Below the pieces are notes generated by a model that was not told the origin of the DNA, did no database searches, and saw nothing but the letters and a program-made list of their open reading frames with translations. A stretch of DNA of 28,997 bases from a virus: IMG/VR virus record IMGVR_UViG_3300001213_000185, positions 1 to 28,997 of that record, one strand, 5' to 3'. Shown one piece after another: positions 3,383-8,922 of the stretch (positions within the stretch are counted from its first letter, which is position 1; every line of letters starts with the position of its first letter). A program made the translations under genes and the position numbers.

Positions 3383-4147
3383 TTAAGGCCCCACTGGTGG
3401 TGGTGTTTCAATTGATCCTAGTGACTCATCTGTATTATCTTCAAAATTTTCAGTTGCAAATAAGTCAACAACAGCAGTTGCAACTATTTTTACATTCTCA
3501 ACTTTACGATACATGAATCCTTCTAAGGTTAATGAAAAATTAGAGGATATTTTTCTAGTGTCTCCAGCTGCAATCTCTGTAGATTCGAAACTAAGTGCAG
3601 GGTTTCCTAATGTTACTTTTATATCACGTTCAATATTTAAAAACTCGAATTCTTTAACTCTTAATGTTGTATTGCTTGGTGTAAAGTAAGGAAAAATGTT
3701 TTCTAGAATTTGGGCCATGTGGTCGATATATTCAGTGAAAACATTAATAGTGAATACATAGTTATAAGGGACTGGATTAAAGTCTTTTATTAAACCATTT
3801 AGGTCTAATAAAATTTGACCTTTATGATCTTCAATAGAATAATTGACATTAGATTCATTCCAGAATCTTTCTGTATTTGGTGAAATAAGTCTGGTTTCAT
3901 CTAAGTTCATACCTTCATAATGAACTTCTATTCTTGGGAATTTTGGAACATATTGTTGTTGTTCCTCATTGGTTCTAGCCCTGTGTTTTGTTTGAGCTGG
4001 ACCAGTCATTAATTCTACATTTACTTCATCGACTATCTTTCCGTTTTTATCATAAGAATAAACGATGATACCAGACAGCATATTCATTACTGTAACAAGC
4101 ATCCTCTTTGTAGTCATCGGGTAATAGTACCCTTGTTTTCCTCTCAT
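3383..4147 (-). CDS. 15: Tail sheath stabiliser and completion protein (gp15-like)
   Basis: 254 residues; T4 gp15 is 272. Stretches recognisable from T4 gp15 are PRIEVHYEGM, FNPVPYNYVFTINVFTEY, IDHMAQILENIFPYFTP and RDIKVTLGNPAL, followed by a SLTLEGFMYR strand equivalent to the T4 segment ending in GWMYPP. The C-terminus ends PPPVGP, again like the proline-rich T4 tail. gp15 forms a hexameric ring at the head-proximal end of the tail and stabilises the sheath and the connection to the neck. A GAGAGGAG ribosome-binding site precedes ATG 4147, and a late promoter motif lies 41 nt upstream. It heads a minus-strand unit that continues into gp16 and the tube-initiator genes. Confidence 0.88.
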   Translation of the reverse strand: MRGKQGYYYPMTTKRMLVTVMNMLSGIIVYSYDKNGKIVDEVNVELMTGPAQTKHRARTNEEQQQYVPKFPRIEVHYEGMNLDETRLISPNTERFWNESNVNYSIEDHKGQILLDLNGLIKDFNPVPYNYVFTINVFTEYIDHMAQILENIFPYFTPSNTTLRVKEFEFLNIERDIKVTLGNPALSFESTEIAAGDTRKISSNFSLTLEGFMYRKVENVKIVATAVVDLFATENFEDNTDESLGSIETPPPVGP

Positions 4148-4227: not shown

Positions 4228-4250
4228 ACTTAATGCAAAAAGGAGATATG

Positions 4251-5210
4251 ATGAGTGAACCAAAAATTATTAAAAATCCAAAAATTTCTGTTGAGAAAAG
4301 GCCCGGGAAGAACTATATTAAAACACCCCTATCAGAGTGGAATGAATGGCCAACAGCAGAGGGAATCAAGCGGTACGGAGGGATCTGGTATAAAGTTGAT
4401 ACAAAATCATCATCAAGTTTGATCGTTGAAAAAATCTTCAATGACCGTGTAAAAAACAGAAAATATGAAGCCATTGCAAAATCCTTTGAAAAAGGTGAAG
4501 ATCTTCACTGGACTGATCAAGTCCAATATGTTAAGTCTTCTGGAAGAGATTCAGCTTATTTTGACTCTGTTCAAATGATTAACAAGATCGACATTAACTC
4601 TCTGTATGGTGCAATGGGTAATAGATTCTTCCATCTATATGATCTGAATAATGCTATTAACATTACTCTATCTGGTCAACATCTAATCAAATATCTTGCT
4701 GAAAATTTCAACAGTTTCTTTAGAAATGAATTCTGGAAAAATAAAAAATACTTCAATGAAATAGATCCTAAGAACGGCGTCATGCAGCCTGTTGTAAAAA
4801 TCATTGAAACAGACTCTGTGACAGGCGATACAATTGTTACTGTCAATGGAAAAGATATAAAAATTGAAGATTTATTTGCAATTTCTGAAGATAAGTGGTA
4901 TATTAATACTAATCAATATGGAGTATTACAAAACGCTTATACACAATCAGTCAATACCTCTACACAACAAGTAGAAACTCAAAAAATCAAATACGTTATG
5001 AAACACGAAGTAGAAAAAGAAATTTTTGAAATCAAAATAAATGGGAAGTCAGTTAAAGTGACTGCCGACCATTCTATTATGGTAAAGAGAAATAATCAAA
5101 TTATTGAAGCCAAACCTTTAGAGATACAAAAAGGTGATTTATTACTTTATATGAAAGAGGTTCTAAATGAACATGAACAAACTCCGCACGATGAAACCAG
5201 CAGCAATTAA
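4251..5210 (+). CDS. 43: Family B DNA polymerase fragment ending in an intein N-terminal half
   Basis: 319 residues from ATG 4251; an upstream in-frame ATG at 4233 is unlikely because its codons form the AAGGAG ribosome-binding site. Residues about 27-188 match T4 gp43 downstream of motif A: LSEWNEWPTAEGIKRYGGIWY, an IFNDR finger segment, and motif B INSLYG at 115-120. The text then reads IIETD at 184-188, the start of motif C (YxDTDS). At residue 189 it switches to an intein: SVTGDTIVTVNG (block A), IEDLF, KYVMKH, and TADHS at 271-275 (block B, TxxH), ending shortly after KGDLLLYMKE. The exonuclease domain, motif A, second half of motif C, thumb and intein C-terminal half are all missing. 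It overlaps the next gene by 44 nt. It could be a working split polymerase piece or a remnant; the intact frame, ribosome-binding site and promoter favour the former. Confidence 0.9.
   Translation: MSEPKIIKNPKISVEKRPGKNYIKTPLSEWNEWPTAEGIKRYGGIWYKVDTKSSSSLIVEKIFNDRVKNRKYEAIAKSFEKGEDLHWTDQVQYVKSSGRDSAYFDSVQMINKIDINSLYGAMGNRFFHLYDLNNAINITLSGQHLIKYLAENFNSFFRNEFWKNKKYFNEIDPKNGVMQPVVKIIETDSVTGDTIVTVNGKDIKIEDLFAISEDKWYINTNQYGVLQNAYTQSVNTSTQQVETQKIKYVMKHEVEKEIFEIKINGKSVKVTADHSIMVKRNNQIIEAKPLEIQKGDLLLYMKEVLNEHEQTPHDETSSN
4815..5207 (+). other. Split-intein N-terminal half at the pol-c site
   Basis: 131 residues beginning at Ser189 of the polymerase fragment. Block A is SVTGDT, and block B is VTADHSIMV with the expected Thr and His. 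The order SVTGDT, I-E-x-L-F, Y-V-M-x-H, V-T-x-D-H-S, P-L-E-I matches inteins at the archaeal PolB pol-c position, which split the catalytic D-T-D. There is no LAGLIDADG or other endonuclease motif and no C-terminal block (H-N before C/S/T). The half stops where natural split inteins usually break. No matching C-half was found among the proteins of this window. Confidence 0.85.
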
Positions 5211-6222
5211 ACCAAAAGTAAATGGGGATGAGGAAGTGATGGATCAACTATCAATGCCTTTTATTTCTATGGGGAAAAATAAAGACTATAAAACGGTTCA
5301 GTCTAAATTCCATGTGCTCTACATTGAAAAAGATAAATCAGAACCAGAATCTATTACTATTCCTTTTGAAAAAATTAAAGACCTCCTTACACCAGAACAA
5401 CAAAATAAGTTCCAAGAAGAAACTTTTAAAGGTAACCTAGAGCTTTCTACTCCTGAAGTAGAATTCAATAGATTTACTCTACACATTGGTGACTTCATGC
5501 ACTTTGACGGTGAAGAAATTGCTCTCAATACTATTATCTATGAACTTGATAGAGCTGAAGAAAATGATGTACTTAATATGCCAATTGCCTCTGATGGTGG
5601 ATCTATTGATGAATACCTTAAATTAAAAAACCATGTACAATCTTCGTTCCCTGGAAGAATCACGACTATCTGTGACCCTAAAGCATATTCTGCTGGGGCA
5701 ATGATGTTCCTTTGTGGAGATAACAGAATTGTATATGAAGACTGTTCTATGATGTTTCATACTTATAAATCTGGTACTTGGGGAACTGGTAAGAACCAAC
5801 TTGATTCTATTCTGCATAATGAAGAACGGTTTAATTCAATGTTCTATCGTGAACTTATTGAACCCGGATATATGACTGAAGATGAATTTATTGAATATCA
5901 CCATGGTAAAGAATTCTGGTTAACATTCGATAAAATTATTGACCGCGGAATTGCAACTCATGTATATACTGAAGGTGTACTACTTACTGTTGACGAATAT
6001 AAACAACTTGTAGAAGACGCTGAAAAACTTGAGGCTGAAGTAGCTAAAGCGGAATCTGAAGCCACTAAAGTTGAAGACGTTAAACCTGAAGAGGCTAAAC
6101 CTGAAGAGACTAAACCTGAAATAATAGTTGAAGAAGCTAAACCTGAGGTAATAGTTGAAGAGGTTAAACCTGAGGCTACAACCGAGGAAGTCAGTATTGT
6201 CGAACTAGGTAAATACGACTAA
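5167..6222 (+). CDS. ClpP-like serine protease
   Basis: 351 residues. The core (about residues 100-275) is a ClpP/crotonase-type protease: SDGGSIDEY at 142-150, the nucleophile in AYSAGAMMFL (Ser175), and the histidine in SMMFHTYKSG (His198). The third ClpP catalytic residue is not obvious: where ClpP has an aspartate before its F-M/L-S motif, this protein reads GKEFWLT. The C-terminal 80 residues are acidic with six K-P-E units. ATG 5167 has AGAGG six bases upstream and lies 44 nt inside the preceding intein-bearing frame, so the two are probably translationally coupled. Phage ClpP-like proteins often act in head maturation, but this phage also has a gp21-type protease, so the substrate is unknown. 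A hairpin terminator follows. Confidence 0.8.
   Translation: MNMNKLRTMKPAAIKPKVNGDEEVMDQLSMPFISMGKNKDYKTVQSKFHVLYIEKDKSEPESITIPFEKIKDLLTPEQQNKFQEETFKGNLELSTPEVEFNRFTLHIGDFMHFDGEEIALNTIIYELDRAEENDVLNMPIASDGGSIDEYLKLKNHVQSSFPGRITTICDPKAYSAGAMMFLCGDNRIVYEDCSMMFHTYKSGTWGTGKNQLDSILHNEERFNSMFYRELIEPGYMTEDEFIEYHHGKEFWLTFDKIIDRGIATHVYTEGVLLTVDEYKQLVEDAEKLEAEVAKAESEATKVEDVKPEEAKPEETKPEIIVEEAKPEVIVEEVKPEATTEEVSIVELGKYD
6070..6183 (+). repeat. K-P-E coding repeats at the ClpP-like C-terminus
   Basis: Imperfect 15-24 bp units centred on AAACCTGA encode K-P-E spaced by short acidic/valine segments (EEA, EET, IIVEEA, VIVEEV). Six copies are present. They form a flexible acidic tail with variable spacing, typical of slippage-prone repeats. 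Confidence 0.8.
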
Positions 6223-6328: not shown

Positions 6329-7198
6329 ATGGCTTATGGCTTAATCAAAAAATTGTATGTGCAAAATAATGCTAGTAGAAGCAAAATTTCTAAATCAAAA
6401 TTCAGTAACAGTTGTGTTGAGTTTGTTAATACACCAGTAAAGAATATTAAAATAAGTTTTACAGGATCCCAAACTTATAGTATGGTGGCAGATCCACGTG
6501 GATTTTCAGTATGTATTAAATCGGGGCATCTTATTAGAATCCTTAGTACAACTACTGTAATTAATGGTGAGATTCAGGATGAATGTGTATGGGTAAATAA
6601 AAACTCGGATTATTTTCCGGTTTCTATCAATGATGCAGAATATAAATCTACTATTAATGTTGATAGTAACTTGGTCACCTGTGCAAAACTTAAAGACGGT
6701 GAAGTAGTCAAAACAATATCTAGATATTATGGTCAAACAGAATTTGTATTCATCGGTCGTGGTACTCCTACATATAAAGCTGATATGAAGTATTATAAAG
6801 ACTATGGTAGTGCAAATAGTGGAACCCCTGACGCGACAAGAACTTTTAATTCTAATAAGGCAAAAGAAGTATTTTGGTTTGTTTCAAAAGTTGATTTCCT
6901 TAAGGGCGATTATACTAAAATGTTTGACAAAACAGCACTTAAATGTAGTCTGAGTGGTGAAACTATTGAATTTAATGAATTGCGTAAATATCGTGAAAAT
7001 ATTGTAGAAGCTATAGTGAGCAGATATTCCCTCCCAAAAACAGTTAGGGAAGAGCTTAAAGAGGTCGAAGCTGAATTTTCAGGACAAGTAAAGTATAGAC
7101 AAAAAAATACCAGAGATTCAATATCTATAAGATGTTATAGGGATTCTATTGATTTCGGTTTGATGAAGAAACTGAAGATACTGTCAAAAATGATATAA
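6329..7198 (+). CDS. Hypothetical protein, probably early
   Basis: 289 residues from ATG 6329, chosen because TAAGGAG lies seven bases upstream; in-frame codons further upstream fall in the promoter and terminator. No known family is recognised. The N-terminal half is beta-rich and polar, with a glycine/threonine stretch (FIGRGTPTYKADMKYYKDYG) near the middle. The C-terminal third is helical and charged (TVREELKEVEAEFSG). It has neither signal peptide nor membrane segment. It is a single-gene unit between an early promoter and a bidirectional terminator, facing the late capsid gene. Host takeover or nucleic-acid functions are common for such genes but nothing here shows which. Confidence 0.75.
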   Translation: MAYGLIKKLYVQNNASRSKISKSKFSNSCVEFVNTPVKNIKISFTGSQTYSMVADPRGFSVCIKSGHLIRILSTTTVINGEIQDECVWVNKNSDYFPVSINDAEYKSTINVDSNLVTCAKLKDGEVVKTISRYYGQTEFVFIGRGTPTYKADMKYYKDYGSANSGTPDATRTFNSNKAKEVFWFVSKVDFLKGDYTKMFDKTALKCSLSGETIEFNELRKYRENIVEAIVSRYSLPKTVREELKEVEAEFSGQVKYRQKNTRDSISIRCYRDSIDFGLMKKLKILSKMI

Positions 7199-7266: not shown

Positions 7267-8922
7267 TTACCAACCTGTAATACCAGTCCAGTTGGAACCA
7301 CCGAAGATAGAGTCAAGTCCGGTGAACACGATTGAACGATAGTAAGCACCAGCAGAAAGAAGGTTAGTCGCAACTGCATAACGGCTCATTACACCAATAC
7401 GTGGTTGGAAGTTTTCTTGTGCGATTGCTTCATTTACAATATTCATTGTATAAGGACAGAAGATAACACCAGAGTCATAAGCAGCAACATTACCACCTTT
7501 ATAACCAACAAGAGCATAGTCTGTAGTAGCGAATTGGTCAAGATATACAGTAAGAACGCCATTAAGTTTACCGATTTCAGTAGATTCTGAACCAGAAAGT
7601 ACGATACCTGGATCAACTTTAGCTTCGTTAGCTGTGAAGAATGGAACAGCAGATTGTAGTACAGAACCTACAGTAGGAGATACTACTACAAAGTTAGCTT
7701 TACCACGTTTTGCATATTTTGCCACTGTGTTAGCCGCAAGAAGAATTGCGTTAACTACGATTGCAGTTGATTGACGGTTATCAGAGATAGTATTACCATC
7801 AGTTACGTCTACTACTAATACGTTACCACCACCATTTTCAGTGTCGATAGATGTAGTTTTAAGAGCGTTAAGGAGTTCACGGTCAAGTTCTGCAGTTGTT
7901 TCGTATTGAAGAACTTCAAGAACTTCCATTTTAAGGTCAAGGTTGTGAAGAGCCTTAATATCTTGCATAGCTTGAAGTGAGAAGCTTGCTGCAAGTCTAC
8001 GTTCAGTAGCTTCAATAAGTTTCTTATCGAATTGTACACCGATCTCATTGATTTTATTTTGAGCGGTAACAGGAGAACCATTAACAGTACCATTTGCATC
8101 AAGAACACCAAGAAGTTCAGAGTCTTTTGTTGAAATACCACGAGCTAAATCAGAAGGAAGACTATTTGTTGAGAAATTAGGTTTATTCCAAGTGATTGTT
8201 GAACCAGGTTCACCAATAGTACCACCATTAGCATAGATTGCACTAGTACGGTTAATGATAGCTTGGTTAAATTCTGTAGCATCGGTATATACACCAGTTG
8301 CAGGATTAGAGTCACCAGTACCAGGAACGAATTTAGGAACAATATTAACACTAATAGGACCTGATGGAGTAGGAGTACCAGCAACATCAGTTGTAATTGT
8401 ATAAGTAGCTGAAGTAGCTACATAACCACCAGAGAAACCTGCATTCTTATCAATATTTACCCATGCAGCTTCAGCAGCGTTACGGTCAACAGTGGAATAA
8501 GTTGAATCTGGAAGTTGACCAGGAGTAGTTGCATGGTAAGATCTCATCGCGAATGCAACACCAACAGGAGCATTCATAGGTTGAACACCAACAAGTTTGT
8601 GAGCGAAAAGTGATGGAAGTACACGACGAGCAAGAGCCATAGATACTGGGTGATACATTGCTGTGTTACCAGTTACTCCAGCGCCGGAACCAACACCAGT
8701 ACCTAATGTACCTGCATTAGTCCATGTACCGATTGTATTATTTTCTTCAACAAGGAAGTTCCCTGAAGAGATTGCCGAATCTTTATCAATATTTTCAAGA
8801 ACAAGCATAGTTGTGTTACGAACTGCACGGTCTTGAATTGCAGCAAGTTTAAGCTTCGCTCTCTTTCCTGTACTCCATTTGCTTTGTACAGAAGGCGCAG
8901 CTGTAATATTTAGTTTTTCCAT
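7267..8922 (-). CDS. 23: Major capsid protein (gp23-like)
   Basis: 551 residues; T4 gp23 is 521. Matches to gp23 include VGVQPMNAPVGVAFAMRS near residue 110, INEIGVQFDKKLIEATERR, LQAMQDIKALHNLDLKMEVL, YLDQFATTDYALVGYKGG, the PYTMNIVNE strand and NFQPRIGVMSRYAVATN near the C-terminus. It forms the hexamers of the icosahedral head (HK97 fold). The N-terminal propeptide contains NFLVEENN; T4 is cut by gp21 after FLTE, so cleavage is expected after Glu59. The region at about residues 150-260 is serine/threonine/proline-rich and differs most from T4, so it is probably a surface-exposed insertion. A late promoter TATAAATA lies 83 nt upstream. Transcription also follows from the gp20-67-21-22 block but is separated by a terminator, allowing high independent expression. 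Confidence 0.95.
   Translation of the reverse strand: MEKLNITAAPSVQSKWSTGKRAKLKLAAIQDRAVRNTTMLVLENIDKDSAISSGNFLVEENNTIGTWTNAGTLGTGVGSGAGVTGNTAMYHPVSMALARRVLPSLFAHKLVGVQPMNAPVGVAFAMRSYHATTPGQLPDSTYSTVDRNAAEAAWVNIDKNAGFSGGYVATSATYTITTDVAGTPTPSGPISVNIVPKFVPGTGDSNPATGVYTDATEFNQAIINRTSAIYANGGTIGEPGSTITWNKPNFSTNSLPSDLARGISTKDSELLGVLDANGTVNGSPVTAQNKINEIGVQFDKKLIEATERRLAASFSLQAMQDIKALHNLDLKMEVLEVLQYETTAELDRELLNALKTTSIDTENGGGNVLVVDVTDGNTISDNRQSTAIVVNAILLAANTVAKYAKRGKANFVVVSPTVGSVLQSAVPFFTANEAKVDPGIVLSGSESTEIGKLNGVLTVYLDQFATTDYALVGYKGGNVAAYDSGVIFCPYTMNIVNEAIAQENFQPRIGVMSRYAVATNLLSAGAYYRSIVFTGLDSIFGGSNWTGITGW

What the first reader, a model, noticed from the sequence alone, without database searches (positions are those of the whole stretch)
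4815..5210. DNA polymerase broken inside motif C by a split intein half
The frame goes from polymerase sequence ending IIETD directly into SVTGDTIV..., a block A intein start, then TADHS block B, and stops without C-terminal intein blocks or C-extein. The break falls in YxDTDS, the active-site motif, the same place as archaeal pol-c inteins. If functional, the two catalytic aspartates would be brought together only by trans-splicing. Natural split inteins in phage fractured genes are known (gp41, nrdJ types), but I know of none splitting a T4-like gp43 at this site.
Basis: partly seen in the sequence, partly recalled or inferred. Interest (0 to 1): 0.92.

Follow-up and report, generated by a model that had tools for sequence, protein, structure and literature searches.

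The report
Lone middle piece of split polymerase
An uncultured T4-like phage keeps the middle third of its DNA polymerase in a gene of its own that ends in half of a protein-joining element (a split intein); split polymerase inteins of this kind are already known in phages, but here the middle piece stands apart from the other two pieces, which is unusual.

Summary
ORF 4251-5210 (+) encodes the fingers and half of the palm of a T4-type family-B polymerase (gp43). It runs straight into an N-terminal intein half (Ser1, block B TADH, no cysteine) and stops without C-terminal blocks. The novelty claim fails. The same split intein in gp43 is known from Aeromonas phage Aes123 (spliced in vitro, crystal structure 9hth), Campylobacter CP21, Pseudomonas MIJ3/PA5oct and others, and I found more than 200 relatives in IMG/VR. 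The mechanism claim also fails in detail. The window's intein falls in the family inserted after YxDTD|S, two residues past archaeal pol-c, so both acidic residues of motif C lie on this piece.

What is unusual: (1) the gene also begins abruptly, about nine residues after motif A, so it is a middle piece; (2) alone of 51 well-flanked loci it has no C-half within reach, and no N-half either. It sits with a ClpP-like gene between gp15 and gp23; one relative (L174) shares this; (3) motif C reads ETD instead of DTD in both. Selection is purifying (dN/dS about 0.14). Most likely it is one of three dispersed gp43 pieces, trans-spliced to an unseen C-half. The record is a 29-kb fragment, so neither partner could be tested.

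The parts
4251..4814 (+). N-extein: middle piece of gp43, from just after motif A (start MSEPK aligned to NISPE) through fingers and motif B (KIDINSLYG) to motif C IIETD; 188 aa, no cysteine
   Evidence: PF00136; phrog_262 and phrog_27191; alignment with L092/L094, shuffle test 0 of 1000; RBS AAAAGGAGATA before the start, also in L174
4815..5210 (+). IntN half of a typical split intein: Ser1 (SVTGDTIV), KH of motif NX (YVMKHEV), block B TADH, KP/block N4; 131 aa, no cysteine; the tail overlaps the next gene
   Evidence: PF14890; 9hth E 2.5e-20; AF2 model matches 9hth Z 14.0 over 119 residues; tree inside the DTD|S clade
4236..4250 (+). probable ribosome-binding region (AAAAGGAGATA) of the 43B1 gene
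   Evidence: conserved in L174 upstream of the aligned ATG
5173..6222 (+). ClpP-like serine protease gene, same direction, overlapping the end of 43B1; same pair in L174
   Evidence: PF00574 E 1.6e-8; phrog_26628; 52% identity to L174
6244..6275 (.). terminator-like palindrome after the 43B1-ClpP unit
   Evidence: pattern match only
3383..4147 (-). gp15 tail sheath stabiliser, left neighbour on the opposite strand; same neighbour in L174
   Evidence: PF16724 E 2.8e-33
7267..8922 (-). gp23 major capsid protein, right neighbour beyond ORF 6329-7198
   Evidence: PF07068 E 2.1e-65

Best explanation
The gene is gp43B1, the middle third of a T4-type replicative polymerase that has been broken into three separately encoded pieces and dispersed in the genome. 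43A (exonuclease and motif A) and 43B2 (IntC, rest of palm, thumb) should lie elsewhere in the phage. The IntN on 43B1 and the IntC on 43B2 should associate and trans-splice at IETD|S by the Ser1/Ser+1 class-1 pathway. The left break, just after the motif-A helix, carries no intein and should be joined non-covalently, as is inferred for the separately encoded gp43A and gp43B of Aeromonas phages. Shown here: the anatomy of 43B1, the intein half and its class, purifying selection, and conservation of the gp15-43B1-ClpP setting in a second phage. Inferred: that 43A and 43B2 exist, the splicing itself, and activity with an ETD motif C.
For: Same three-piece parts list in Aes123: gp43A, gp43B1 with N-intein, VSR endonuclease, gp43B2 with C-intein, and in PTm1. 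43B1 is 67-68% identical to L174, as conserved as gp15, with dN/dS about 0.14 and both extein and IntN constrained. Across 28 aligned relatives K112, N116, G120 and D188 (RB69 K560, N564, G568, D623 by my alignment) and the intein Ser1, KH and TxDH residues are kept. In 50 of 51 well-flanked loci a C-half lies downstream. Dispersal has precedents: in L105's contig 43A is on the other strand, about 23 kb from 43B1; in L129 and L144 it is 7-9 kb away.
Against: No 43A or 43B2 has been seen for this phage clade; the window and L174 are fragments. Motif C is ETD where the other correctly read DTD|S loci have D. The conserved G-hh-P before the fingers helix and the hydrophobic residue of KILINS (Asp here) are lost in both members. 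These could mean adaptation to the split, or loss of polymerase function. Residues 1-49 are predicted with low confidence.
Confidence: 0.66

Rival explanations
1. The phage has a complete gp43 elsewhere (one piece, or the usual A+B1-IntN / IntC-B2 pair), and the stand-alone 43B1 is a displaced duplicate kept for another task, for example a decoy or regulator whose IntN competes for the IntC half.
For: 43B1 alone is moved next to late structural genes and paired with ClpP in two phages. Motif C and other motif residues have drifted (ETD, KIDINS, lost G-hh-P). Related phage L092 has an ordinary adjacent gp43 pair.
Against: The polymerase residues carried by this piece are mostly kept, and the motif B to C stretch is its most conserved part (80% identity). 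No second gp43 has been seen.
Confidence: 0.17
2. Relic: a fragment left by rearrangement or endonuclease-mediated breakage, decaying and without function.
For: L174 has a frameshifted homing-endonuclease-like ORF downstream; ETD and other motif changes.
Against: Open frame, conserved RBS and start, 67-68% identity with dN/dS about 0.14 in two phages.
Confidence: 0.06
3. The intein sits at the true pol-c position (IIETD|TDS), so trans-splicing would separate and rejoin the two motif-C aspartates. This concerns only the joint and can go with the three-piece reading.
For: IIETD|SVTGDT can be lined up with IIYGD|SVTGDT of the YxD|TDS class without gaps.
Against: The IntN falls in a 44-row clade whose rows are all of the DTD|S class (97/79 support), apart from the 19-row YxD|TDS clade. 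It has MKH like its class, where the other class has MRH. ETD lines up with DTD in L092 and L094.
Confidence: 0.08
4. Assembly artefact or chimera placing a polymerase fragment among structural genes.
For: The window is a metagenomic contig fragment.
Against: An independent contig from another record (L174) has the same order gp15 - 43B1 - ClpP at 52-68% identity.
Confidence: 0.03

Closest known systems
Aes123 PolB1 split intein, Aeromonas phage Aes123 gp43A/gp43B1/gp43B2 (JN377899; PMC11923092; PDB 9hth)
   Same: Three-piece gp43; IntN on the middle piece directly after (D/E)TD; Ser1; cysteine-less intein; about 39-42% identity in the intein
   Different: In Aes123 the pieces are adjacent with a VSR endonuclease between the intein halves; motif C is DTD; its left break lies in the fingers, not just after motif A
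Campylobacter phage CP21/F379 PolB1 split intein (PMC12707363; HE815464, MT932329)
   Same: Best cultured matches (37.5-41.7% identity); IntN after DTD, partner HN|SCY
   Different: 43A and 43B1 are one ORF in F379; the C-half is about 1 kb downstream
Split DNA polymerase B of Pseudomonas phage MIJ3/PA5oct (PMC6892783)
   Same: Split intein at DTD|S of a phage PolB
   Different: Two pieces, with an endonuclease ORF between the halves
Archaeal pol-c inteins and the Neq Pol split intein
   Same: Inteins at motif C of family-B polymerases; Ser1
   Different: The pol-c site is YxD|TD (archaeal site from memory; the phage YxD|TDS class was seen here), two residues upstream of the DTD|S site
L092, IMG/VR 3300001533_000696
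   Same: Closest gp43 after L174 by scan score (about 40-44% identity); SVTGDT intein start
   Different: A+B1 in one ORF, DTD motif, C-half 163 bp downstream, no endonuclease between

Membership tests
Naturally split class-1 intein, N half | Nucleophile at position 1 and block A directly after the N-extein | tested here: met
   S189 SVTGDTIV after IIETD; PF14890 over cut-off
Naturally split class-1 intein, N half | Block B TxxH | tested here: met
   TADH; T271, D273, H274 invariant in 28 relatives
Naturally split class-1 intein, N half | HINT fold | tested here: met
   AF2 model of residues 188-306 vs 9hth Z 14.0, rmsd 2.1, 119 aligned
Naturally split class-1 intein, N half | Frame stops before blocks F and G | tested here: met
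   Stop at 5210; no IntC in the window
Naturally split class-1 intein, N half | Complementary IntC-extein gene in the same genome | not testable with these tools
   The record is a 29-kb fragment; the only linked relative, L174, is 14 kb and has no other polymerase piece
Naturally split class-1 intein, N half | Trans-splicing activity | not testable with these tools
   Needs expression of both halves
Cysteine-less PolB split inteins (Aes123 type) | Ser1, no Cys, NX-motif His | tested here: met
   No Cys in the 319 aa; MKH present (NX motif per PMC10189870, where an Arg is said to precede the His; Aes123 has Lys too). Only the N half could be judged; L174 has one Cys in block B
Cysteine-less PolB split inteins (Aes123 type) | Insertion at YxDTD|S with Ser+1 in the partner | tested here: inconclusive
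   Clade and alignment point to DTD|S, but the partner is unseen and the residues are ETD
Archaeal-type pol-c insertion (YxD|TDS) | N-extein ends at the first Asp of motif C and the intein clusters with that class | tested here: not met
   Window IntN lies outside the YxD|TDS clade
T4-like gp43, family-B polymerase | Motif B KxxxNSxYG | tested here: met
   KIDINSLYG
T4-like gp43, family-B polymerase | Motif C DTD | tested here: not met
   ETD in window and L174; D in the other correctly read DTD|S loci. Second Asp kept. Filed as a piece of gp43 by homology, not as an active polymerase
T4-like gp43, family-B polymerase | Motif A (DxxSLYP) and exonuclease domain on the same protein | tested here: not met
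   Absent from this ORF, which starts about 9 aa after SLYP; not elsewhere in the window

The most novel reading that the evidence does not exclude
The phage makes a complete polymerase from other genes and keeps this stand-alone fingers-IntN protein as a decoy or regulator: its IntN would capture the IntC-43B2 half and splice it into a polymerase core lacking motif A and the exonuclease, tuning or blocking replication late in infection.
Probability: 0.1. Interest if true: 0.75.

Novelty: new variant of a known kind. Interest (0 to 1): 0.42.

Why it matters
If the three-piece reading is right, the polymerase active site of this phage is divided over separate genes: motif A on 43A, fingers and motif C on 43B1, thumb on 43B2, with one joint closed by trans-splicing and the other not. 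That shows how far a replicative polymerase can be dispersed and still be kept under selection, and it makes the ETD motif C testable. Practically, the cysteine-free IntN is a candidate for the small set of cysteine-less split inteins used in protein chemistry. The claim that such splits were unknown in gp43 does not stand.

Tried and rejected
Searched for relatives with the partners: viral-contig scans with 43B1, gp23 (20), the 413-1411 protein (33), C-halves (27), gp20 (49) and the N-terminal tag (40) gave only L174 (14 kb) and L175 (9.7 kb) as clade members; neither holds 43A or 43B2. L094 comes from the same sample as L175 and carries an ordinary gp43 pair, but GC (38% vs 29%) and tetranucleotide profile (r = 0.04) say it is another phage, so I do not use it to claim a second gp43 in the clade. 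A second split intein at the left break was considered and rejected: no block F/G or HN precedes the start. An exact pol-b (SLYP|S) left break, suggested by the first alignment, was rejected after realignment: the break is about nine residues later, at NISPE. My motif-C table misread one row (L168), and its regex skipped the YxD|TDS loci; both were re-read by eye. In one search the regex mis-read the window itself; that row is ignored. dS between window and L174 is near saturation, so dN/dS is approximate. The promoter scan was at chance. No plasmid match.

Full report
Observation. The window is a 28,997-base virus record, a fragment of a T4-like phage (gp23, gp15, gp20 and UvsW-like genes). 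The frame 4233-5210 on the + strand is open. It matches DNA_pol_B (PF00136, 25.4 bits, cut-off 23) and then Intein_splicing (PF14890, 37.6 bits, cut-off 35.8). The intein starts at Ser, nt 4815, after IIETD. It has block B TADHS and stops with no C-terminal blocks. The AF2 model of the IntN part matches the Aes123 PolB1 split-intein crystal structure 9hth at Z 14.0 over 119 residues.

It is not the first of its kind. tblastn against cultured phages finds the same arrangement in Campylobacter F379/CP21, Aeromonas Aes123/Aes508/AS-gz, Pseudomonas PA5oct/MIJ3 and Tenacibaculum PTm1. The Aes123 record is annotated as gp43A, gp43B1 with N-intein, VSR endonuclease, gp43B2 with C-intein. The Aes123 intein has been spliced in vitro and solved (PMC11923092). 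CP21 and two metagenomic PolB split inteins are published (PMC12707363), and so is the MIJ3 split polymerase (PMC6892783). In IMG/VR at least 215 stretches encode relatives of the 43B1-IntN region and 213 of the C-half.

Where the break falls. Phage PolB inteins use two sites. One group ends YxD and its partners begin HN|TDS (26 loci); this is the archaeal pol-c position (archaeal site from memory). The other ends YxDTD and its partners mostly begin HN|S-x-Y. A tree of 72 IntN sequences puts the window and its relative L174 in a 44-row clade made up only of DTD|S rows (97/79), away from the 19-row YxD|TDS clade. So the window's joint is most likely ETD|S, and both acidic residues of motif C are on this piece. 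In both members of the clade the first Asp is Glu; the other correctly read DTD|S loci have Asp. In RB69 that Asp belongs to the catalytic triad D411/D621/D623 (PMC3792054).

The left end is also a break. The start codon at 4251, with RBS AAAAGGAGATA, is conserved in L174. The first residues align with NISPET, about nine residues after SLYP of motif A, in L092 and L094; none of 1000 shuffles reached the score of this left segment. Motif A and the exonuclease are absent from the ORF and from the window. The other stand-alone 43B1 genes mostly begin 30-70 residues before motif B, so this break is further upstream than usual. No IntC precedes it, so this joint would not be spliced.

Isolation. 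Of 51 loci with at least 3.5 kb upstream and 4 kb downstream, 50 have a C-half downstream and 47 have the N-half upstream; the window alone has neither. L174 has the same gp15 - 43B1 - ClpP order but only about 1.5 kb beyond 43B1, ending in a frameshifted homing-endonuclease-like ORF, the kind of gene that often lies between intein halves. In three other contigs (L105, L129, L144) the 43A piece is 7 to 23 kb away, in L105 on the other strand. Dispersal of pieces thus has precedents; full isolation of the middle piece was seen only here.

Is it functional? Window and L174 43B1 are 67-68% identical, like gp15 (67.5%), and more than ClpP (52%) or the 413-1411 protein (41%). dN/dS is about 0.14 with dS near saturation; motif B to C is 80% identical, IntN 62%. 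Invariant polymerase and intein residues are kept, but G-hh-P before the fingers helix and one residue of motif B have changed in both.

Explanation. I favour a three-piece gp43 with dispersed genes and one trans-spliced joint (0.66). The main rival is a displaced duplicate with another role (0.17). Neither partner gene could be looked for beyond the fragments held. The finding is a variant of a known kind.

Noticed in passing
window 17958(+), 18594(+), 19479(-), 23142(+), 23556(+); L174 4990(-), 10012(+), 10796(+); L175 2647(+): Otherwise different proteins share an N-terminal tag like MKRSELKQIIREVIEE (5 in the window by DNA pattern, 0 expected by chance). It may be a capsid-targeting sequence like that of T4 internal proteins, ending in an I-x-E prohead-protease-like site. 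In IMG/VR only these clade members carry the exact tag; no match in cultured phages.
   Followed up: partly
L083, L104, L110-L112, L116-L118 and others versus L092-L103 and others: Phage PolB inteins occupy two sites two residues apart, YxD|TDS and YxDTD|S, with matching partners and largely separate IntN clades.
   Followed up: partly
L105, L129, L144 (records G001, G002, G003): Three-piece polymerases whose 43A gene lies 7-23 kb from 43B1/43B2, in one case on the opposite strand.
   Followed up: partly
L129:1398-4451: A ribonucleotide reductase-like gene broken by a split intein (IntN ORF, HNH endonuclease-like ORF, IntC ORF with DDILVHNC) a few kb upstream of the split polymerase; L144 has an uninterrupted-looking stretch at the same place.
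   Followed up: no
L174:13648-14126: Frameshifted homing-endonuclease-like ORF (DUF7487, phrog_3339) one gene downstream of 43B1, cut by the contig end; the C-half may follow.
   Followed up: partly
L105:3850-4749: A ClpP-like gene also lies about 1 kb from 43B1 in L105, on the opposite strand; coincidence or recurring neighbour.
   Followed up: no
window 6329-7198: ORF between the ClpP gene and gp23 with a domain shared with Pseudomonas and Vibrio phage hypothetical proteins (phrog_6266).
   Followed up: no
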